A stretch of DNA of 36,747 nucleotides from positions 1 through 36,747 of IMG/VR virus record IMGVR_UViG_3300010430_000241, one strand, 5' to 3'. This document shows positions 26,396 through 36,747 of the stretch, piece after piece. The notes under the pieces are model-generated. The model did not search any database, was not told the DNA's origin, and saw only the letters and a program-made list of their open reading frames with translations. This DNA is from a virus. A program made the position numbers and the translations under genes. Numbering within the stretch: the stretch's first letter is position 1; each line of letters begins with the position of its first letter.

Positions 26396-26517
26396 TATTG
26401 CTTCCTCCTAATAGTAGTTTTGCTTCCTGCTCTTCTTATATTTGTTATCTTGGCACCGAATACGTTCTGTATCATAATAATGTTCATTTCTTGCCAAGGC
26501 TGTTTCGAACTACTCAT
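26395..26517 (-). CDS. 40-residue basic peptide (small gene)
   Basis: A 40-codon frame that fills the gap between the HIRAN and HAD genes. It starts at ATG 26517, overlapping the HIRAN stop region (AATGAGTAG), and its TAA overlaps the HAD ATG (TAATG). AGGTGG lies six bases before the ATG. The product starts MSSSKQPWQEMN and ends in a strongly basic stretch (KITNIRRAGSKTTIRRKQ), seven positive charges in the last 18 residues. Both junctions are the same kind of coupling seen across the operon, which argues that it is a real gene. Nucleic-acid binding is possible, but the function is unknown. Confidence 0.55.
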   Translation of the reverse strand: MSSSKQPWQEMNIIMIQNVFGAKITNIRRAGSKTTIRRKQ

Positions 26518-26899
26518 TTGGTGCCACCTGATTAATTGCTATATGGCAATATGGTCTATTTTTATGTAGTCCAATTTTGAACTTGTCATTTTCATATCTT
26601 ATGCATGCTGTAAATTCAACTCCAGAATCCATCATTGGTGCTAGAATCTCAGCATAATCCTTGCCAATATAACCGATCTGTTTTAATTGATTGTCCTGAT
26701 CTTCCATGTCATAGTGCATTACCATAACCGCATTAACATCATATTTGTTAGTTGGCTCACGTTTCAATATAATTGCTGGTGGGAAACCATTGGCTTGAAT
26801 TTTGTCTATCATCTCACTGATATATTCCCTTCTACTAGTACCATTTTCATTCTTGAAAGTTACACCTACTACGTTTACCGCTAAATCTTTTACTGACAT
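26510..26899 (-). CDS. Stand-alone HIRAN domain protein
   Basis: A 129-residue protein that is just a HIRAN domain: VVGVTFKNENGTSRREYISEMIDK, then LKREPTNKYDVNAVMV (the 'REP.N.YD..AV.V' signature) and IGYIGKDYAEILAPMMDSG. HIRAN domains bind 3' ends of single-stranded DNA in the helicase HLTF; here it is not attached to a helicase, so it may guide replication or repair partners to DNA ends. AGGAGG lies upstream and the gene starts 14 bases after the polymerase stop. Confidence 0.85.
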   Translation of the reverse strand: MSVKDLAVNVVGVTFKNENGTSRREYISEMIDKIQANGFPPAIILKREPTNKYDVNAVMVMHYDMEDQDNQLKQIGYIGKDYAEILAPMMDSGVEFTACIRYENDKFKIGLHKNRPYCHIAINQVAPNE

Positions 26900-26913: not shown

Positions 26914-29886
26914 TTAATAGTTAAATTCTTTATATTTTAGGTCGCCTCCGATTAATTTTACGAAGTCGATTATCCTATTATTTAGCCCGATCGTTTGTGG
27001 GCACTTCATTTCGATTACTGTTCCACGTACAATACATGTAAATATTACCTCAGTCAATCCTTGATGTTCATAGAACATCTTATTTAATTCTAGTATATCT
27101 TCATAATTTATTGAATTTGGTAAGTAGATGTGACATTCTGGACAATCTCTAATACCATCATTTGTCATTGGTCTAATATATAAGCCCTCAAGCGATGGTT
27201 TACCATGATAGGGCTTGCCAACCCTACATTTCATTGCTACTGGTACATTTAAGTCACTAATATATTGATGAAATGTCTTCCATAGATCCGGAAATACCGT
27301 ACAACTATATTGCATAAACTCTGTTTCTACTGTAATAAAGCCCATCTTCTTGCCTTTGTTGCGACCATCCTTTGTAATAGTATGCTCATGTTTATCTACC
27401 AGATATCCTGCAATATAAACCTCAGTTCCTACTTGGAAATCAGCAATATCTTCATCTTCAAGTGAATTCCATCGATACATCTCATCACGATACCTGTCAA
27501 TTGGATGCGCCGATATAAAGAAACTAAGTACTTCATTTTCCCATTCTGCATATGTGATTGGATCTTCTTCAATCTCTTCTAAAGATGCTAGTGGTGCGTT
27601 TATCCGTATTAACTGCATTACATCATCATATGTCGGATAATAATCACCAGCTACACGCTTCTTTTTGCGCTTCCACTTATTAATTTTATCATTAATCTCT
27701 CTACATCCAGCCGCCATGGTCATTCTATTTGGGAATTTGTGTACTCCAGCTTGCAATAAGTCATCAAATGCGCCACACTTAACCAGCGCTTCTACTGCAG
27801 TTCCATTAACCGCGCCGCCAGCGACCCTTAATCTAAAGTCTTCAAATGAGATATATGGTCCATTCAAGTCTATATCTTTCAGGATTGCCTCAACTGTCTT
27901 AGGTCCGATACCAGATATAGCTTGCATACCAAATCTAATAATATTCTTATCTGTCATAGTAAACTTGGTTGCACCTGATGATACCAATGGTGATAATAGA
28001 TTAATCTGTTCATTATTTCTGGTCATATCTTTAATAACAAGCATCTGTTTCTTTGGTTTATTGCCAACAATCAATGAATTTAATTCTGCTGTATAAAAAC
28101 AATCTGCATATTTAGATTTAGCTATTGCACCACGTCTCATATTTTCTGCATATTCAACAGCATGAGCGCGGTTGAATCCATATCTACCAAACGTTCTGAT
28201 TTGATCCTTTGCAATTTGAATAATTGAATCTTTTTGCTGTGGAGTTAGACTCTTGGTTGTGAAATTATGTTCCCTAGCCGCATCTCCTAACCATTCTAAT
28301 TCACTGTCGATTAGAGCCATATTCTTTTTACCAACTGCCTTACGTAGAATATCTGCACGCCCAAGTGAACATCCTGTCATTTGTCTAACACGATAAATAA
28401 TTTGTTCTTGGAATACCATAATACCAAATGTATCTTCTAGATATTCAGCTTCCTCAGGAAAGAGATATACTACCTTATCTTTACCAGATTTACGGTCGAT
28501 CAGATGCTGTACCATAGTCTTACCATCAATTTCTGCATCCAAAGGTCCTGGCCTATATAATGCATTTCCCATTATTATATTCAATTGTGATTGCATACCT
28601 ATTTCTGGTAATAAATCATAATCAACCATTTGTGGTATAAAGCCCATCGATTCTGCTATACTATCTGCATCATAAAGATCTTTCATTAGTTGCGTAAATC
28701 CACCAGATTCGCACTGAAATATTGATTTTGTATTTCCATCTCTAAATAACTGTTTTACATCATGATCTCCTAGAGGTGTTGATTTATATGCAAATTCAGG
28801 ATCATACCAGTGCTGTACTAGCTTCTCTGCGTCAAAATTAACATCTACAGTTCTAAGGCCTAATGCATCCAATTTAAGGTATCCAAAATCTTCTGCACGC
28901 ATCATATCAAATTGCATCGCGGTCACATATTTACCACTACTATCTTTATAATAGATTAATGGCACATTTTCGCTCAACACCTTAGGTGATATAATAACAC
29001 CAGCGGCATGGACTGATGGACTCTTCTTGAGACCATATAGTCTCTTGATAACATTTATTACTCTATCGCCATCCCACTTTGATAGGAAAGTGAATCTTAC
29101 TGAACATAAAGGATTAGGATCAGTCTTGATTGCGGCAAATTTCTCCATCTGTTCATCGTTTAACATATCAATGAATTTGTCATTATCAAATAATTGACCA
29201 TATGTTTGCTTATCTGCTATAACCTCAATATCTGGATACGATATATTATGTACCGCATTTATAAAATCTTCATTGTCTAGTAATTCTTCAAGGTCACAGC
29301 CTTCACCAAATGTATCTTTGACTTCATCTATGACCACTTCTGCGACTCTGGCTGATTTTAATACGTCACTTACTACTGAATTAGCACCAAAAGTCTGAAA
29401 TGTGATTATCTGGGAAACCTTATCTGCACCATTCTTCCATGCAATATAATCTACTACAATATGGCGATAGCGTTGGGATATATCAAAATCAATGTCTGGA
29501 GGGGCTATTCGTTCTGAGTTTAAGAATCTCTCGAAAATTAGCTTATATTCAATTGGACAAAATTCATGGATACCAATGGCATAACATGCTATAGACCCAC
29601 CCACAGATCCACGGCCTGGTCCTAATGGGATTACTCCATATTCGGGCAATTCATGACCGCGCAACTCACAGAATTCCTTAACACGTTTCTCATCTCTACA
29701 GAAGTCATGAATGTCCCATACATTTAATATATAATCTTGAAAATTGTTTTCCTCTATAATTACACGTTTTTCGACTTCATATCTCTTAACTACTTCATCA
29801 TTCTGTTGCCAATTCGGTCCGTATTTCTCAACGAATCCCTTCTCGACTATGTGCATCAGGAATCTGCCTTGTTTGTTTATTTCCAT
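26914..29886 (-). CDS. dnaE: DNA polymerase III alpha catalytic part (DnaE-like, no PHP)
   Basis: A 990-residue C-family replicative polymerase without the PHP domain. It begins where DnaE normally passes from PHP to palm (NFQDYILNVWDIHDFCR), then LGPGRGSVGGSIACYAIGI, the catalytic PDIDFD (Asp131, 133, 135), HAAGVIIS (293-300) and FGYLKLDALGL (Asp340). The fingers and thumb follow (RPGPLDAEIDG, EEAEYLEDTFGIMVFQEQI, GCSLGRADILRKAVGKK, YGFNRAHAVEYA), then a helix-hairpin-helix (ISGIGPKTVEAIL) and an OB fold (VYIAGYLVDKHEHTITKDGRNKGKKMGFITVE). No DEDD exonuclease is fused. The C-terminus has an extra CPEC segment. The start has GGAGG eight bases upstream and overlaps the 219-residue gene by 59 bases. 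The PHP part is a separate gene, 30719-31720. Confidence 0.9.
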   Translation of the reverse strand: MEINKQGRFLMHIVEKGFVEKYGPNWQQNDEVVKRYEVEKRVIIEENNFQDYILNVWDIHDFCRDEKRVKEFCELRGHELPEYGVIPLGPGRGSVGGSIACYAIGIHEFCPIEYKLIFERFLNSERIAPPDIDFDISQRYRHIVVDYIAWKNGADKVSQIITFQTFGANSVVSDVLKSARVAEVVIDEVKDTFGEGCDLEELLDNEDFINAVHNISYPDIEVIADKQTYGQLFDNDKFIDMLNDEQMEKFAAIKTDPNPLCSVRFTFLSKWDGDRVINVIKRLYGLKKSPSVHAAGVIISPKVLSENVPLIYYKDSSGKYVTAMQFDMMRAEDFGYLKLDALGLRTVDVNFDAEKLVQHWYDPEFAYKSTPLGDHDVKQLFRDGNTKSIFQCESGGFTQLMKDLYDADSIAESMGFIPQMVDYDLLPEIGMQSQLNIIMGNALYRPGPLDAEIDGKTMVQHLIDRKSGKDKVVYLFPEEAEYLEDTFGIMVFQEQIIYRVRQMTGCSLGRADILRKAVGKKNMALIDSELEWLGDAAREHNFTTKSLTPQQKDSIIQIAKDQIRTFGRYGFNRAHAVEYAENMRRGAIAKSKYADCFYTAELNSLIVGNKPKKQMLVIKDMTRNNEQINLLSPLVSSGATKFTMTDKNIIRFGMQAISGIGPKTVEAILKDIDLNGPYISFEDFRLRVAGGAVNGTAVEALVKCGAFDDLLQAGVHKFPNRMTMAAGCREINDKINKWKRKKKRVAGDYYPTYDDVMQLIRINAPLASLEEIEEDPITYAEWENEVLSFFISAHPIDRYRDEMYRWNSLEDEDIADFQVGTEVYIAGYLVDKHEHTITKDGRNKGKKMGFITVETEFMQYSCTVFPDLWKTFHQYISDLNVPVAMKCRVGKPYHGKPSLEGLYIRPMTNDGIRDCPECHIYLPNSINYEDILELNKMFYEHQGLTEVIFTCIVRGTVIEMKCPQTIGLNNRIIDFVKLIGGDLKYKEFNY

Positions 29887-30487
29887 TCAATTGTCCTCCG
29901 AGTTTGTTAAATATATCATCAATTTTACTGCCAGTACCATCCAATGATGGTTGAATAACTATTGACAAGACATCATCCCCACCTAGCTTTTCCCATATCG
30001 GCTGTAAATGATCAGGCCTGTTGTTATACATTTTCTCCAGCACAACTGTTCGATATCTCTCATGGCTTTGTGCCTGTTTAGTACAATCTGTGCTAATAGA
30101 CATATAACCCATAGTCTTTATTGCGAATTCTGAATATTTGATACGCCATTGGTCTAAATCAACCACATCATTATTCTTAACATTCATAATCTGATTAATC
30201 TTGCCACATACCTCACTATATACCTCTTTGGTTGTACACTGAATATGCAAGATCTTGTTTGTTAGGTGTTGCTTCCGTTCTCCGATCTGAAAGACATTAA
30301 CGAGTAGGTCTTGTTTGATTGGAACGCCATTTCGCGCTATTGGTGTCGATGGTCGACGCGGTTCTGGTGTTTCAATGTCTGATTCAACCAATTGATTTGT
30401 CGAGGGTTCTTCTGGTAATTTAATATCTCTAAGATTCACTGTTGGCCTCCGTTTCTTTTTGAACAAACCTGACATTATGTTCATCAT
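29828..30487 (-). CDS. Unknown protein between PHP and polymerase genes (219 aa)
   Basis: A 219-residue protein with a basic start (SGLFKKKRRPTVNLRDIKLPEE), a Pro-rich and charged linker (EPSTNQLVESDIETPEPRRPSTPIARNG), and a more compact C-terminal part (DLLVNVFQIGERKQHLTNKILHIQCTTKEVYSEVCGKINQIMNV...). I do not recognise the family; no nuclease, GIY-YIG, HNH, LAGLIDADG or intein motif is seen. AAGGAG lies seven bases before ATG 30487. It overlaps the upstream gene and the polymerase by 59 bases each. Its place between the two halves of the split DnaE suggests a partner of the polymerase, which is inference. Confidence 0.6.
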   Translation of the reverse strand: MMNIMSGLFKKKRRPTVNLRDIKLPEEPSTNQLVESDIETPEPRRPSTPIARNGVPIKQDLLVNVFQIGERKQHLTNKILHIQCTTKEVYSEVCGKINQIMNVKNNDVVDLDQWRIKYSEFAIKTMGYMSISTDCTKQAQSHERYRTVVLEKMYNNRPDHLQPIWEKLGGDDVLSIVIQPSLDGTGSKIDDIFNKLGGQLNGNKQTRQIPDAHSREGIR

Positions 30488-30728
30488 TATTTCTCTCCTT
30501 ATATGGTATTATATCATGTGTTACACCTGTATTGTCAGTAATAGTCAAATATATATCATCAATACTAAATGTTTCACTAGTATCGTCAACGATTGCTTCG
30601 ATTGATTCTCTTAAGCATTTAATATTATTGTCGTTTATTGCCTTACCCTTATATTGCTGTAGCACCGTTCTGATTTCTCCCTCTATATCTCTATCGTCCG
30701 TTGGTGCTATGGTTATATTTAATCCCAT
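30429..30728 (-). CDS. Unknown small acidic protein after the PHP gene (99 aa)
   Basis: A 99-residue acidic protein with GLNITIAPTDDRDIEGEIRTVLQQYKGKAINDNNIKCLRESIEAIVDDTSETFSIDDIYLTITDNTG, an alpha/beta pattern with no motif that I recognise. Its ATG lies inside the last codons of the PHP gene (overlap of ten bases), 9 bases after GGAGG, so it is almost surely coupled. Its C-terminus overlaps the next gene. Function unknown. Confidence 0.6.
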   Translation of the reverse strand: MGLNITIAPTDDRDIEGEIRTVLQQYKGKAINDNNIKCLRESIEAIVDDTSETFSIDDIYLTITDNTGVTHDIIPYKERNNDEHNVRFVQKETEANSES

Positions 30729-31720
30729 TGTTCCACTCCTCCATTCTCAAACCACTCTGGCACACTGAATTTTGGTGTAAAGATTTCCTTTGATGGTTTT
30801 AACACATTGCCATCACATCTGTTGGCTATAATCATGGTATTTTTAATATATTCATCTTTAAACGATGTTCTCAACTCATTTGCAGACAATATATGATATC
30901 CTTTCCCTTTAAAGCCAAATGTATTAGGGTGGTCAGTTTCCTTATTAAAATTGATTGCTAGGAGATTTGCATGTGCATCCATATCATCTTTATATCTATA
31001 GTGCGCGTCTGTAGCCGCAATAATCGTAATACCCATTGATTCTGCTATGCCTACCTTCTGGTCGTTAACAGTATTCTCATCAGGTATGTCATGATTATGA
31101 TATTCTAATATAAAATCATCACCAAATCTAGACTGGAACCAGTTTAACATTGCCATGGTACCGCCAAAATCTTCCTTGAGTATCATTTGGTCAACTGGTC
31201 CACCAATACAGGCTCCACTCCAGATAATGTCGTCTCCATATTTGTCAATCAATTCCAAATCAATACGTGGCTCATGATAGAATCCTTCATAATATGAGTA
31301 CCACATCAATGAACATAGATTCTGGTAGCCCTTCCAATTCTTCGCCCATGCATTAAGATGATAATATGCCTCACCACGCCTCTCAAATGATTTATAATGT
31401 CTGGAATTAATCATGAGACCATTGTTCCATACCCAATCATCCTGATTATAATCTTGTTTTGGCTGTGCCGCCATATAGAATTCACATCCTATAATATGCT
31501 TCATCCCAAATGCATAAGCCGCCAGTGCTAAATCACCATGTGCCGACATAACGCCATGATCTGTGGCAGTTATGATGCCATGTCCCCGTTCTTCTGCTAT
31601 TTGAATAATATCTTCTTTAACTTTCTTGGGTTCATCATGATCCAGTGTTCTGATCATACCGTCTTTATTAGAATATTCCGTATGTAGATGCATATCCACG
31701 AAATCAATCTTATTCTCCAT
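30719..31720 (-). CDS. Stand-alone PHP domain of DNA polymerase III alpha
   Basis: A 333-residue protein equal to the N-terminal PHP domain of DnaE. All metal-site positions are present: His11 and His13 (DMHLHTEYS), Asp54-His55 (TATDHG), Glu80 (IGCEFYM), His121 (YYHLNAWAKN), Cys171 (SGACIGG), His208/His210 (EYHNHD), Asp238 and His240 (ATDAHY). An intact set suggests Mn/Zn-dependent 3'-5' proofreading activity. The protein ends PKFSVPEWFENGG, exactly where DnaE proceeds to its palm, so the split is at the domain border. GGAGG is seven bases before ATG 31720, and the start overlaps the sigma gene by 11 bases. Confidence 0.88.
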   Translation of the reverse strand: MENKIDFVDMHLHTEYSNKDGMIRTLDHDEPKKVKEDIIQIAEERGHGIITATDHGVMSAHGDLALAAYAFGMKHIIGCEFYMAAQPKQDYNQDDWVWNNGLMINSRHYKSFERRGEAYYHLNAWAKNWKGYQNLCSLMWYSYYEGFYHEPRIDLELIDKYGDDIIWSGACIGGPVDQMILKEDFGGTMAMLNWFQSRFGDDFILEYHNHDIPDENTVNDQKVGIAESMGITIIAATDAHYRYKDDMDAHANLLAINFNKETDHPNTFGFKGKGYHILSANELRTSFKDEYIKNTMIIANRCDGNVLKPSKEIFTPKFSVPEWFENGGVEQWD

Positions 31721-32435
31721 ATATTACATCCTCCCAATCTGGCACCGTGTTGTCGATATGGTCATATAACCTTGCTTTCAGTTTCTTCGTGAGTTGTATT
31801 ATCCTTTGCTTAGAAATGTCAAGTTCTCTGGCAGTAGTAGTCTGAGCTTTGCCTTCAATAATAGATTTTAGAATATATTCATCTCTTTCACTTAAATCCA
31901 TATTATTTACCGCCAGCTTCACTGCTAATAGTACACCCTCAATATGTTTGTCACGCTCATTGTTAATTATTTCTTCTTCTGCTGTAGGATATGCTGATTG
32001 GTTGTTTACATTTGGATGCCTTCTTGTATATGTTTCGAATGTCTCTTCATTAGACATGTCATCATATTCCTTCATTAATTGGTATCTCTTATTATCTTTA
32101 ACTTTACTTTGATAAATATATCTGACTCTACTGTCCAAGTGTGATTGAATGAAATTATTATATGTGGCTTGTCCATCAATCTCATATTTAAATTTAGTAT
32201 AATGCCACATCCAATATCTAATGTCTGCTAGTATATCATTCCAGCCAATAATCACTGTGCCGTTGTTATACTTAATAGACCATTTCTTGCAGATCGTCAA
32301 TAATAGTGGCTTAAATATATCGAGGAGGAAGGTCATTCCCTCCTCCTCCAAGACAGCATCTCCAGACTGAACCTTGACTACCGCATCATTAATATTATCA
32401 ATTTTTTCGCATTCGCCTCGTTTCAGTCTAGTCAT
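31710..32435 (-). CDS. RNA polymerase sigma-like factor
   Basis: A 241-residue protein starting at ATG 32435 (or 250 from GTG 32462). The N-terminal half has a sigma region 2-like core (FLLDIFKPLLLTICKKW, WNDILADIRYWMWHYTKFKYE, YNNFIQSHLDSRVRYIYQSKVKDNKRY). The C-terminal part has a region 4 helix-turn-helix (LSERDEYILKSIIEGKAQTTTARELDISKQRIIQLTKKLKARL). Together they match small sigma-70-like factors of phages and Firmicutes that redirect host RNA polymerase to middle or late promoters. I prefer the ATG that follows the dUTPase stop by one base; its ribosome binding site is weak, as coupling would allow. It overlaps the PHP gene by 11 bases. Confidence 0.7.
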   Translation of the reverse strand: MTRLKRGECEKIDNINDAVVKVQSGDAVLEEEGMTFLLDIFKPLLLTICKKWSIKYNNGTVIIGWNDILADIRYWMWHYTKFKYEIDGQATYNNFIQSHLDSRVRYIYQSKVKDNKRYQLMKEYDDMSNEETFETYTRRHPNVNNQSAYPTAEEEIINNERDKHIEGVLLAVKLAVNNMDLSERDEYILKSIIEGKAQTTTARELDISKQRIIQLTKKLKARLYDHIDNTVPDWEDVIYGE

Positions 32436-32436
32436 A

Positions 32437-32955
32437 TTAGTTACCCGTACTTCCGAAGCCACTGCAATTTCGCTGTGTAATGCCTAAATTATCATGGCAA
32501 TTAACTTCTATTATATTTGGTGTACACTTTTTATGAATTACTAATTGTACTAATCTATCACCATGTTTTATCATAATCTTTTTATCACTTAAATTTGCAA
32601 TACAAGCAATCAATTCACCTGTATATCCTTCATCGATTATTGAATCACCAGATATCATTAATTTCTGATTGGTTGATGATCTACATTCTAATCTACCATA
32701 ATAGCCCATAGGCATCCTAACAAATATACCAGTTGGAATGTTGACCATTTGTTTCTTTGGTAACCAGAAGTACGGCATTGTGTCCATACTTGGTGAAGGC
32801 ATGATCCCTAATGCAAAACCATCTGCTTGATGGATTCCAATATGCTCTTGTACTATAGATGGCAGATCATAGCCCACATCACCTTGTTTCTTGACATGTA
32901 TTAAATCAAATTCTCTAGCCTCTTCCGTTCTGAACACCTTCAAATCTTGCATCAT
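32437..32955 (-). CDS. dut: dUTPase
   Basis: A 172-residue trimeric-type dUTPase that keeps uracil out of DNA and supplies dUMP. The five motifs are seen: VGYDL (27-31), RSS (92-94), GDSIIDEGYTGEL (103-115, with Asp108), GDRLVQL (132-138) and GFGSTG (166-171). An insertion of about 15 residues (GIMPSPSMDTMPYFWLP) lies between motifs 1 and 2. Two ATGs lie in a row (32955 and 32952); GAGGAGG is at five or eight bases. It follows the NrdD stop directly. Confidence 0.88.
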   Translation of the reverse strand: MMQDLKVFRTEEAREFDLIHVKKQGDVGYDLPSIVQEHIGIHQADGFALGIMPSPSMDTMPYFWLPKKQMVNIPTGIFVRMPMGYYGRLECRSSTNQKLMISGDSIIDEGYTGELIACIANLSDKKIMIKHGDRLVQLVIHKKCTPNIIEVNCHDNLGITQRNCSGFGSTGN

Positions 32956-34893
32956 CTATTCCTCCTCATGCCAATCTTTACAGACTCTTAATTCTGCATC
33001 ATAATTTCGTCTAGTTGGGTTCCAACATTCTTCAAATGAATAATACCCTATCACTCGATTCATTGCTGTTTTAATTGGTGCTCCACAATCAGGGCATTCT
33101 CTAGACTGTCCGATTATGTTTGTGTGTCCATTTATACATTTACCTGTTCTAAAACAGATCCCAACATGATTAACACCAGATTGAGCACACAATTTAAATA
33201 GTTGATACATCATTTTTGCTGAATGCAGTCTATCTTCAAAGTTCAAATGAACAATACCACCACCTGAAATTATGCTCATGAATCTACCTGCGATATCAAT
33301 TCTATCGAAGATATCAACATCAGCAATTAATGGAACATATTGATTACTATAAAGATTGGTTGCTATGTCATATCCAAATGTTCTATCTTTCTTAACTAGT
33401 GTAACACAAGTTTGTTCACCTGGAATTTCTTCAATGTTATAAGCCCAACCATCTTCTTTGCGATATTCCTTTGTCTTTTCACGCATGAATGAGAATATAT
33501 CTTGAGCAATCTCGGTGCCGTTATCATCTATGATATCATATCCAAGATATTCTACCATTTCCTTAGCACCCGTAATACCAAATGTTGAGAACATCGTATC
33601 CAATGAGAACCAGCCCGTACCGCCGCCTTCACGATCTCCGAAGAACTTGAGATATTTAGGTGTACGATCAATTCTCTTTTGTAAGACATCTATTCTATGA
33701 ATCTTTAATAATCTTCGTGCTGTATCCATTCTGTGTGTTAATAGCTCTTCTATAGACCCCTGACCTGCATTTGAGTCTAATGCTAATCTAGGTAGATTGA
33801 TTGTTACTACTCTATGAGATCCAATATTAACCCCGCCATTTCCAAAGCTATCTGGTGACATATCCATATCATCTAGATCATTCTCATATCTACAACACAT
33901 TGCCAACTTGGATTTCTTGCCAAAATGGATATTGAAATTACCCAAATTCATATTGGTTTCTGCCGCCCACTGTGCGAACTCTTCATCGATGAATTCTTTC
34001 TTATCGCCGATCGTGATGTTCATTGTTACTACTGGAAATCTGTATGGGAATCCAGTAATTGGATCACCATTTTTGAACCACTCACAGAATATCTTCTGTA
34101 ATTCCATGATATAGTCTATATCTGGCTTGCTACCATCAGGATAGAATACGTGACCAAATAGGCTATTTAGACCAGATTCATCATAAATACCGAGATTGAC
34201 GAATGGAGATTCTCCTTCAGATCTTGATGCGTCATTGAAAAGGACAACCAATGATTGATAATCTTGGATGATTTCTTTCCTATGGGCTGGATTTCTAGGG
34301 TCGAGGTTCTCTTTTTGACAGAAATGTGCATACCACATGAAGAAGTCTGATGGTGCTGTTGCTCCTGCAAATTGTCTTGACATATCTCCAATGAGCTTGT
34401 CGACCTGTGAGATAAATGATCGTCTGTGCTTCGCTGGTGTATTAATTGATGGTCCATAAGGTCTCCCTTCCACTACCATGCTTGTTAAACTGAATGCATA
34501 GCAATACGGTAGTTGTAATTTCTTGCCGTGTGCGTCATGGAAGTATAATTCTCCGTCCCAAATCGCCGCAATGTCTCTGTTTGCTTGGTCAATACCATAT
34601 CTCTTCACACCATAATACCATAATGTATGATATCCCAATAACTTCATAGGTCCATTCATAAGATGTGCAGAGTATGTTGTTGGATCTTGTATTTCTGTAA
34701 TATTGCTGTTCTGATCTTGATAGACATCTGATAGTCTATTTTGAAAAAATTCTTTACTTGAATTACCGATATCTAATTGATTGGGTGCAATCCCTGTTAA
34801 TTTTAGTAGATCTAATCCTTTACTACTTTGTGTATATGAATCATATAATAATTTAAATTCTCTCTCTACAGTAATACCAGCTATTCTTGACAT
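32956..34893 (-). CDS. nrdD: Anaerobic ribonucleoside-triphosphate reductase, large subunit
   Basis: A 645-residue glycyl-radical enzyme that makes dNTPs from NTPs without oxygen. The start is set by AAAGGAG five bases before ATG 34893; the frame could open further upstream but this is the sensible start. Features: KLAMCCRYEND with the thiyl Cys, GNGGVNIGSHRVVTINLPRLA, and the glycyl-radical loop RVIGYYS (Gly616) near the C-terminus. The zinc site appears altered: Cys586-xxx-His590 and Cys600-xx-Cys603, where T4 NrdD has four Cys. The N-terminus is short, without a full ATP-cone, as in T4-like phage enzymes. The activator NrdG is the next gene upstream. Confidence 0.9.
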   Translation of the reverse strand: MSRIAGITVEREFKLLYDSYTQSSKGLDLLKLTGIAPNQLDIGNSSKEFFQNRLSDVYQDQNSNITEIQDPTTYSAHLMNGPMKLLGYHTLWYYGVKRYGIDQANRDIAAIWDGELYFHDAHGKKLQLPYCYAFSLTSMVVEGRPYGPSINTPAKHRRSFISQVDKLIGDMSRQFAGATAPSDFFMWYAHFCQKENLDPRNPAHRKEIIQDYQSLVVLFNDASRSEGESPFVNLGIYDESGLNSLFGHVFYPDGSKPDIDYIMELQKIFCEWFKNGDPITGFPYRFPVVTMNITIGDKKEFIDEEFAQWAAETNMNLGNFNIHFGKKSKLAMCCRYENDLDDMDMSPDSFGNGGVNIGSHRVVTINLPRLALDSNAGQGSIEELLTHRMDTARRLLKIHRIDVLQKRIDRTPKYLKFFGDREGGGTGWFSLDTMFSTFGITGAKEMVEYLGYDIIDDNGTEIAQDIFSFMREKTKEYRKEDGWAYNIEEIPGEQTCVTLVKKDRTFGYDIATNLYSNQYVPLIADVDIFDRIDIAGRFMSIISGGGIVHLNFEDRLHSAKMMYQLFKLCAQSGVNHVGICFRTGKCINGHTNIIGQSRECPDCGAPIKTAMNRVIGYYSFEECWNPTRRNYDAELRVCKDWHEEE

Positions 34894-34903
34894 ATTTTCT
34901 CCT

Positions 34904-35374
34904 TTAATAACGGATCTCATATAGTCCACCGTCACGACCTCTCCTCTTAAAGGCCTTTTGGTTTTCTGATGATGGAAATCCGTCTCTTTTTTGATTGTGT
35001 CTATACATACCATATTTAATAAAATCACATATATTTTCAAGATTTGTTCCAATTGATATACGTGTATATCCAGTATATAATGCTATGTTTCTTTTATAGA
35101 TATTTCTGAGTTCTGATGCTAGCAGAAATAGATCAGCATATGATTGGTCAAGTGGTTCTCCGCCTAGAAATACTATCCAATCATTATCGGCAATATTTAC
35201 AGTCTTTACAATATCATCTATTGACATCTCAATGCCATCAAATGATTGTAGTTCTGGATTTTGGCAATCTTTACATCCAATATTGCATCCCTGAAACCAT
35301 ATTGTAGTTACTGCTTCATCCGTGAATGGTTTACCGTTAGTTATATCGAATTTATCTATTCTCGCTATCTTCAT
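34904..35374 (-). CDS. nrdG: Anaerobic ribonucleotide reductase activating protein
   Basis: A 156-residue radical-SAM activase that installs the glycyl radical on NrdD. The 4Fe-4S cluster motif Cys30-x3-Cys34-x2-Cys37 (QGCNIGCKDCQNPEL) and the 'FLGGEPL' motif are clear. Its start overlaps the kinase stop (ATGA), and the NrdD gene starts 10 bases after its stop, so the pair is coupled. Confidence 0.9.
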   Translation of the reverse strand: MKIARIDKFDITNGKPFTDEAVTTIWFQGCNIGCKDCQNPELQSFDGIEMSIDDIVKTVNIADNDWIVFLGGEPLDQSYADLFLLASELRNIYKRNIALYTGYTRISIGTNLENICDFIKYGMYRHNQKRDGFPSSENQKAFKRRGRDGGLYEIRY

Positions 35375-35898
35375 TGGATTGCCTTCTTTATATCAAATAC
35401 AACATCTTGTAATGCCTGATTTCCATTGACTACGATCTTTGGTGAGATTTGTCTGATCATCGGCAATGTGACTTCATTATATTTCTCAAATCTGTTAACA
35501 ATGATTGATAGTATATCATCATTTCTTTTTCTTTGTGATAGTCGATATCCGCAGACCTCCAGATCTGTGTCAACCAAGATAATAATTGGCTCTGAATTTG
35601 TAATGCTCTTTAAGAACAGATATTGATCATAGAATCTTGGAAATCCATCTAATACTATCATATTAGCTGTATTGGATGCCGCCACTATTTTAGTCTGTAT
35701 CTGTGTTCTCATCGCCATTTCATTTGCTAGTCCGCCTCTAGCAAGACTATCCGCTGTATTTGTGTCGATTTTTGCTAATTCTCTTGCAATATCACCTGAT
35801 GATATGTAAATTCCTCCAAGGTCTGTTGAGAGTTGTCTGCCTATGGCTGATTTACCTGATCCAGGTGGTCCTACAATTACTAAAACTTGTGTATTCAT
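35371..35898 (-). CDS. Adenylate-kinase-like nucleotide monophosphate kinase
   Basis: A 175-residue P-loop kinase of the adenylate kinase group. The P-loop is GPPGSGKS (10-17), the NMP-binding part SSGDIARELA, and DGFPRFYDQ the third motif. The lid is very short (YRLSQRKRNDDILSIIVNRFEKYNEVTLPMI), as in short-form AK, UMP or dNMP kinases. It probably helps to make dNTPs together with the reductase and dUTPase, but its exact substrate is not clear. AAAGGAG lies ten bases before ATG. Confidence 0.8.
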   Translation of the reverse strand: MNTQVLVIVGPPGSGKSAIGRQLSTDLGGIYISSGDIARELAKIDTNTADSLARGGLANEMAMRTQIQTKIVAASNTANMIVLDGFPRFYDQYLFLKSITNSEPIIILVDTDLEVCGYRLSQRKRNDDILSIIVNRFEKYNEVTLPMIRQISPKIVVNGNQALQDVVFDIKKAIQ

Positions 35899-35947
35899 AA
35901 TTACTTGCTCCTTTCAAAATCGCCGCATAGTTGTTATAGTGTTTGAG

Positions 35948-35972
35948 CCAGCCATCGTAAAGTGATGACCGG
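35948..35972 (-). terminator. Hairpin between helicase and kinase genes
   Basis: On the - strand RNA, CCGGUCAUC pairs with GAUGGCUGG through nine positions with two G-U wobbles and a 7-base loop. On the + strand the wobble positions become A-C mismatches, so the structure is favoured in the operon's own transcript. No T-run follows, so it is more likely a processing or attenuating hairpin than a strong terminator. Confidence 0.4.
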
Positions 35973-35980
35973 CCCGTAAA

Positions 35981-36747
35981 CTATTGTTCATTGAACATAA
36001 ACTTCGTTTCTCCAATTCTTTGTGTGGGACCGTCCAAATATAAGCTAAATGGTATATCACGTTCACCATGTCTATTCTTATCAATTAATCCCTTAATATT
36101 CCCTACTACAGGTAGTGTGCCCTCATTAATCTCATCTTCTGTTCTACGCTTTAATGTAATATAGTTATCTGCATCTTGTGCTATTTCATATGATCCTGCA
36201 CCATGTTCGGCACGTGCATCATCTTCGATCAGTGCTTGTTTGCTTAACTGCGACACCAATACGACAGCCACCTTGAACTCATTCGCTAATTGCTTCCATG
36301 CCTTTGAGATCAGTCCAAGCTCCTGATATCGCTGTTTCTTAGTGCCAGATATCATTTGCAATTGAACGTAATCGATAAAGATAACTTTAGCTTTGTATTT
36401 CATTATATGTCTACGAGCTATTGACAATGCCTTTGATAAATCATGACCCTGATCTGCAATGTGTAATTTTGATTGTGCTAGTAATGCCGCCGCACCCTCT
36501 ACTGATCTAAGTTCTTCCTGATCTACATGACCAGTACGTAACTTCTCTGATTCTACACCTGAGAGCATCGACATAAATCTAGTCGTACATTGTTCCTTAG
36601 TCATCTCAAGCGATAGCCATAATGAATCTTCCAATTCAGTTTCTGGCGCTGTTATTGAAATATATTCTGCCCAGTTTTGGCATGTTACAGTCTTACCAAC
36701 TGTTTGATTTCCAGCCACTACAGTGAGTGTAGCATCATCTAGTCCTA
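35981..36747 (-). CDS. dnaB: DnaB-like replicative helicase (partial, cut by window edge)
   Basis: The C-terminal ~255 residues of a RecA-like replicative helicase; the frame is open through base 36747, so the N-terminal part lies beyond the window. The GTG at 36718 is an internal codon, not the start, as GLDDATLTV precedes it in frame. Walker A is AGNQTVGKT, then SLEMTKEQCTTRF, Walker B IFIDYVQL, and VVLVSQLSKQALIEDD with the arginine-finger-type GAGSYEIAQDADN segment. It unwinds the fork for the polymerase. The stop is TAG at 35981. Confidence 0.88.
   Translation of the reverse strand, partial: GLDDATLTVVAGNQTVGKTVTCQNWAEYISITAPETELEDSLWLSLEMTKEQCTTRFMSMLSGVESEKLRTGHVDQEELRSVEGAAALLAQSKLHIADQGHDLSKALSIARRHIMKYKAKVIFIDYVQLQMISGTKKQRYQELGLISKAWKQLANEFKVAVVLVSQLSKQALIEDDARAEHGAGSYEIAQDADNYITLKRRTEDEINEGTLPVVGNIKGLIDKNRHGERDIPFSLYLDGPTQRIGETKFMFNEQ

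What the first reader, a model, noticed from the sequence alone, without database searches (positions are those of the whole stretch)
26914..31720. DnaE split at the PHP/palm border, with two unknown genes in the gap
A complete PHP domain (333 aa, all metal ligands present) and a complete polymerase part (990 aa, all three catalytic Asp regions) are separate genes. The break is at the exact inter-domain junction, and both parts have their own strong ribosome binding site. Two unknown overlapping genes (99 and 219 aa) lie in between. Such an arrangement suggests a multi-subunit replicase whose PHP is supplied in trans for proofreading or as a scaffold, and whose intervening proteins may bridge it. 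No intein motifs, intron borders or homing-endonuclease motifs are seen in the gap.
Basis: partly seen in the sequence, partly recalled or inferred. Interest (0 to 1): 0.78.

Follow-up and report, generated by a model that had tools for sequence, protein, structure and literature searches.

The report
Phage DNA polymerase encoded in two genes
This phage encodes its bacterial-type replicative DNA polymerase (DnaE) as two genes, a metal-binding PHP domain and the polymerase proper; the cut is real and shared by a whole phage lineage, but the two genes lying between the halves are changeable passengers rather than conserved parts of the enzyme, and two-gene DnaE has already been reported in other phages.

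Summary
On the minus strand of a tailed-phage contig, DnaE is encoded as PHP (30719-31720, 333 aa, all nine metal ligands) and Pol (26914-29886, 990 aa, catalytic Asp present), cut at the PHP/palm linker, with 99- and 219-aa genes between. It is not an artefact: a second contig is 99.995% identical, and five diverged relatives (about 44% identity) share the replication operon and the same cut. A sixth contig (L023) and the isolated Bacillus phage vB_BpsS-140 have the same cut with NO genes between; the two frames simply overlap. So the split does not depend on the gap genes. Gap content turns over: five relatives carry a ferredoxin-thioredoxin-reductase-like gene, four also a ~134-aa gene; the window's 99/219-aa genes have no detectable relatives. 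PHP-only and Pol-only trees both recover the same eight-member split clade, and the halves diverge in step (r = 0.99). Best reading: in-place fission of DnaE; PHP works in trans, most likely as the proofreading nuclease subunit (no DnaQ found), and the gap genes are passengers. The "bridge" idea is not supported. Split dnaE is already on record for vB_BpsS-140 (2019) and Microbacterium cluster EF phages (2020).

The parts
30719..31720 (-). PHP domain of DnaE as a free gene (333 aa), nine metal ligands intact
   Evidence: Pfam PHP E 1.5e-27; phrog_405 41-330; ligands HHDHEHCDH; family profile aligns to Taq DnaE residues 1-302, E 3e-55
26914..29886 (-). Polymerase part of DnaE as a free gene (990 aa: palm, fingers, HhH, OB-region and C-terminal extension)
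   Evidence: Pfam DNA_pol3_alpha 6e-53, finger 4e-30, HHH_6 7e-17; phrog_405 336-1053; Taq DnaE profile match E 2.5e-126
30429..30728 (-). 99-aa gap gene, orphan, likely passenger
   Evidence: good SD; no Pfam/PHROG match above noise; no convincing relative in phages or in the related records
29828..30487 (-). 219-aa gap gene, orphan, likely passenger; overlaps Pol start by 59 nt
   Evidence: good SD; no relative in phages, plasmids, IMG/VR (close scan) or related records other than the twin contig; AF2 single-sequence model unusable, pLDDT 42
31710..32462 (-). 250-aa sigma-factor/HTH-like gene directly upstream of PHP, overlapping it; syntenic in relatives
   Evidence: phrog_1740 sigma factor E 0.002; syntenic in L039, L040, L068, L070, L071; annotated sigma-70 at the same place in vB_BpsS-140
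32437..36718 (-). Upstream part of the same operon: dUTPase, NrdD, NrdG, adenylate-kinase-like, DnaB-like helicase
   Evidence: Pfam; same order in relatives, partly in L023
24148..26899 (-). Downstream part of the operon: HIRAN protein, 168-aa protein, RNase H, ATP-dependent DNA ligase
   Evidence: Pfam; same order in five relatives

Best explanation
An ancestral phage DnaE gene broke in two in place, in the linker between the PHP and palm domains, and both halves were kept as separate, translationally coupled genes of one replication operon (shown by synteny, junction alignment and congruent trees). The PHP protein most likely still sits on the polymerase, as a non-covalent subunit in the position it has in one-piece DnaE, and supplies the Zn-dependent 3'-5' exonuclease that proofreads (inferred: intact nine-ligand site, no DnaQ found, lock-step divergence). 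Small unrelated genes were later inserted at the new gene boundary, where they do no harm; the window's 99- and 219-aa genes are two such passengers (inferred from their absence or replacement in relatives).
For: Same cut in window, L039, L040, L068, L070, L071, L023 and vB_BpsS-140. No gene in the gap in the last two. Different gap genes in the others. Eight split DnaEs form one clade in the joint tree (SH-aLRT 99), in PHP-only (97) and Pol-only (100) trees, with PHP/Pol distances correlated at 0.987. Active-site residues intact in all ten split PHPs; the HHDHEH[C/H]DH set is the published criterion for an active PHP (PMC12926913), and such a PHP proofreads in M. tuberculosis DnaE1 (PMC5636811). 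No DnaQ (PF00929, TIGR00573) and no second PHP gene in ten records with split DnaE.
Against: No physical association or activity was tested; the complex exceeds the size the structure tool takes. The IMG/VR records may be incomplete, so lack of DnaQ is not proven there, and host DnaQ could be used. For vB_BpsS-140 the authors list a 777-base 'polC-type' gene (PMC6375668) that I could not identify; no DnaQ profile hit was found in that genome. Gap genes sit inside an operon with good ribosome sites, so some role in replication or nucleotide supply cannot be excluded. Whether the Microbacterium split is a separate event is unresolved (AU p 0.53).
Confidence: 0.72

Rival explanations
1. The 99- and 219-aa proteins are dedicated subunits that bridge PHP and Pol.
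For: They lie exactly between the halves, are coupled to them by overlapping frames and have good SDs. Weak secondary-structure likeness between the 219-aa model and the ~134-aa gene of relatives.
Against: Absent in L023 and vB_BpsS-140 with the same split; replaced by other genes in five relatives; L040 even lacks the ~134-aa gene; no sequence or profile relation of 99/219 to those genes.
Confidence: 0.06
2. The PHP protein has left the polymerase and works alone, as a free nuclease or phosphatase, while Pol replicates without it.
For: It is a free gene with intact ligands, and free PHP enzymes exist (established knowledge of the PHP superfamily).
Against: It stays beside pol in every split genome found, is the only PHP gene in each record, groups with the DnaE PHPs of its own clade and diverges in step with Pol. 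In DnaE structures PHP packs on the polymerase core (established knowledge).
Confidence: 0.15
3. The halves are rejoined: by trans-splicing intein, intron removal or programmed frameshift.
For: Inteins do split phage DnaE elsewhere: L057 has a Hint/intein piece at the broken end. In L004 and L023 the frames overlap, so a frameshift could join them.
Against: No Hint match in the window halves; both end at the domain edge with own start, SD and stop; the window gap holds over 800 nt with stops, so a frameshift cannot join them.
Confidence: 0.02
4. Assembly error, sequencing frameshift or decayed gene.
For: The contig is metagenomic.
Against: Second contig identical over 19.8 kb but for one base; same cut in seven other viruses including an isolate; all catalytic residues kept.
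Confidence: 0.01

Closest known systems
Bacillus phage vB_BpsS-140 dnaE_1 + dnaE_2 (PMC6375668; MH884512)
   Same: Same cut at the PHP/palm linker, same neighbours (adk, dut, sigma, PHP, Pol), same clade in trees
   Different: No gene between the halves: the two frames overlap; 35-37% identity
Microbacterium cluster EF (Krampusvirus) phages with two DnaE genes (PMC7302621; e.g. NarutoRun, MortySmith)
   Same: PHP gene (345 aa) and Pol gene (767 aa) separate at the same linker, PHP ligands intact
   Different: Genes 10 nt apart, no gap genes; PHP has an extra C-terminal tail; very distant; whether it is the same fission event is unresolved
One-piece DnaE1 of bacteria and other phages (e.g. Taq DnaE 2HPI, M. 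tuberculosis DnaE1)
   Same: Same domains in the same order, same active-site residues
   Different: Single polypeptide
Split minimal Pol III of group 2.2 jumbo phages (PMC7824862) and palm-internal splits (Cellulophaga phi19:2, Staphylococcus Sextaecvirus, L024)
   Same: DnaE-type polymerase encoded in pieces
   Different: Cut inside the polymerase core, not at the PHP border; the jumbo version has no other Pol III domain
Split-intein DnaE
   Same: DnaE in two genes, sometimes with a gene between
   Different: Intein pieces at the broken ends, as in L057; none here

Membership tests
C-family DNA polymerase, DnaE form | PHP + palm/fingers/HhH domains homologous to DnaE | tested here: met
   Pfam, PHROG and PDB profile matches
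C-family DNA polymerase, DnaE form | Palm catalytic aspartates | tested here: met
C-family DNA polymerase, DnaE form | All domains on one polypeptide | tested here: not met
   two genes; the works-like claim is not affected
Active PHP proofreading exonuclease | Nine ligands HHDHEH[C/H]DH | tested here: met
   criterion from PMC12926913
Active PHP proofreading exonuclease | Zn/Mn-dependent 3'-5' exonuclease activity | not testable with these tools
   needs purified protein
Phages with two-gene DnaE split at PHP/palm (vB_BpsS-140, cluster EF) | Cut in the linker between PHP and palm, genes in one operon | tested here: met
Phages with two-gene DnaE split at PHP/palm (vB_BpsS-140, cluster EF) | Single common origin of the fission | tested here: inconclusive
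   eight-member clade supported; inclusion of Microbacterium neither shown nor rejected
Split-intein gene with homing endonuclease in the gap | Intein pieces at the broken ends | tested here: not met
   no Hint/intein match in the window halves, while the same library finds one in L057

The most novel reading that the evidence does not exclude
A whole phage lineage replicates with a two-subunit C-family polymerase in which the PHP domain has become a separate, dissociable proofreading subunit: a functional counterpart of the E. coli epsilon subunit that arose by fission of the polymerase itself.
Probability: 0.5. Interest if true: 0.5.

Novelty: new variant of a known kind. Interest (0 to 1): 0.33.

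Why it matters
One-piece DnaE makes it hard to separate the structural and the nuclease role of PHP. A natural system with PHP as a free gene would let one add, leave out or mutate the PHP and measure polymerase stability, processivity and fidelity directly. It also shows that the PHP/palm linker tolerates fission and that the new gene boundary can then collect unrelated genes.

Tried and rejected
Intein, intron or homing-endonuclease cause: rejected. Gap genes as conserved partners: rejected. Homology of the 219-aa gene to the ~134-aa gene of relatives, and of the 99-aa gene to small genes in L068/L040: suspected by eye, not supported by hhalign. AF2 of the 219-aa protein alone: pLDDT 42, unusable. 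AF2 of the ~134-aa family: pLDDT 60; Foldseek against PDB and BFVD gave nothing. Close scans with single window proteins found only the twin contig, and one with the vB_BpsS-140 PHP found nothing; two- and four-row alignments were needed. Bacterial genomes: 79 of the 80 best DnaE loci are fused. 'Two independent fissions' was my first reading of the tree, withdrawn after the AU test. Complex modelling not done: the tool takes single chains up to 1200 aa.

Full report
WHAT IS THERE. The window is a 36.7-kb virus record with tailed-phage genes on the plus strand (terminase, portal, capsid, minor tail protein, Baseplate_J, amidase) and a replication and nucleotide operon on the minus strand. Reading along the minus strand the order is DnaB-like helicase, adenylate-kinase-like, NrdG, NrdD, dUTPase, 250-aa sigma-like protein, PHP, 99-aa, 219-aa, Pol, HIRAN protein, 168-aa protein, RNase H, ATP ligase. 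PHP and Pol are the two parts of a DnaE: they match phrog_405 at positions 41-330 and 336-1053 and Taq DnaE. All nine PHP ligands and the palm aspartates are present. The genes overlap by 10-59 nt and each of PHP, 99, 219 and Pol has a good Shine-Dalgarno sequence.

NOT AN ARTEFACT. A second contig (IMGVR_UViG_3300005589_000047, 47.5 kb) is identical but for one base over the 19.8 kb compared. I do not know whether the two come from independent samples, so the diverged relatives carry more weight.

RELATIVES. Alignment-based scans of IMG/VR found five contigs with Pol 43-44% and PHP 42-44% identical and with the same operon order (L039, L040, L068, L070, L071; L071 begins inside NrdD). All have PHP and Pol as separate genes cut at the same place. 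Two more distant viruses, L023 and the isolated Bacillus phage vB_BpsS-140 (L004), have the same cut, but there the two open frames overlap by about 40 nt and no gene lies between. In vB_BpsS-140 adk, dut and a sigma gene precede PHP as here. Its authors list the halves as dnaE_1 (1065 b) and dnaE_2 (2520 b) (PMC6375668). [quoted passage not shown]

HOW COMMON. In a mechanical survey of the loci at hand most DnaEs are one open frame (IMG/VR 99 loci fused; 79 of 80 bacterial loci fused). These loci were chosen by similarity and contain duplicates, so the figures are not frequencies. Other split DnaEs met on the way are cut elsewhere: inside the polymerase core (L024, Staphylococcus phages L011/L012, Cellulophaga phi19:2) or at an intein (L057).

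ORIGIN. In a tree of 49 DnaEs the eight split ones (window, L039, L040, L068, L070, L071, L023, L004) form one clade (SH-aLRT 99). They do so with the PHP part alone (97) and with the Pol part alone (100), and PHP and Pol distances correlate at 0.987. So the PHP gene is the DnaE's own PHP, cut off in place, not a recruited enzyme. The quick tree put the Microbacterium split elsewhere, but an AU test does not reject one clade of all ten (p 0.53). One or two origins remain open.

THE GAP GENES. Five relatives carry in the gap a ~120-aa protein with three CxC motifs (CPC-X8-CPC-X8-CKC), whose best profile matches are ferredoxin-thioredoxin reductase catalytic chains (Pfam 17.3 bits against a cut-off of 22; PDB E 0.017; alignment). 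That is likeness, not membership. Four of the five also carry a ~134-aa protein just before Pol. L040 and L068 have further small ORFs. L023's genome carries an FTR-like stretch far from DnaE, so that gene is not tied to the gap. The window and its twin have no FTR-like gene but the 99- and 219-aa genes, for which nothing was found. The gap is thus a place of turnover. As a guess, the FTR-like protein may serve the anaerobic ribonucleotide reductase (NrdD/NrdG) of the same operon.

HOW IT MOST LIKELY WORKS. Shown: fission at the linker, conservation of both halves and of their linkage, intact PHP site, loose relation to the gap genes. Inferred: PHP binds Pol as it does within one-piece DnaE and provides proofreading. 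In support, no DnaQ-family exonuclease (PF00929, TIGR00573) and no second PHP were found in ten records with split DnaE, and a PHP with this ligand set is the proofreader of M. tuberculosis DnaE1 (PMC5636811). No beta-clamp gene was found either (PF02767), so a host clamp is presumably used. Against: several records may be incomplete, host DnaQ is possible, and nothing biochemical is known.

VERDICT. As a two-gene DnaE it is a known arrangement; the occupied, variable gap is the new variant.

Noticed in passing
L024 7962-11980 (IMGVR_UViG_3300037225_001468): A DnaE broken inside the palm (480 aa with PHP, then 659 aa) with a Clp-protease gene (Pfam CLP_protease E 1.6e-47) exactly in the break.
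   Followed up: partly
L057 5041-12923 (IMGVR_UViG_3300035698_022419): Phage DnaE interrupted by what looks like a split intein (Hint domain at the end of the PHP half) with a 332-aa gene in the gap; by eye the polymerase part seems to hold further inteins.
   Followed up: partly
L039 6070-6444, L040 7552-7917, L068 7081-7431, L070 7769-8140, L071 3830-4201: Small ferredoxin-thioredoxin-reductase-like proteins in phages that also carry NrdD/NrdG; possible redox partner of the anaerobic ribonucleotide reductase.
   Followed up: partly
window 30719-31720: The window PHP has an insertion of about 18 residues (near 88-105) between ligands E80 and H121, absent in its relatives.
   Followed up: no
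window 26510-26899: A free HIRAN-domain protein directly downstream of Pol, conserved downstream of Pol in all five close relatives.
   Followed up: no
L190 (uncultured Clostridia MAG): Bacterial DnaE with PHP and Pol in two overlapping frames; could be a frameshift error in the assembly.
   Followed up: no
L011 4923-8265 and L012 4980-9053 (Staphylococcus Sextaecvirus): DnaE in pieces; in L011 an HNH endonuclease gene lies in the break, and the L012 record joins two pieces as one gene.
   Followed up: partly
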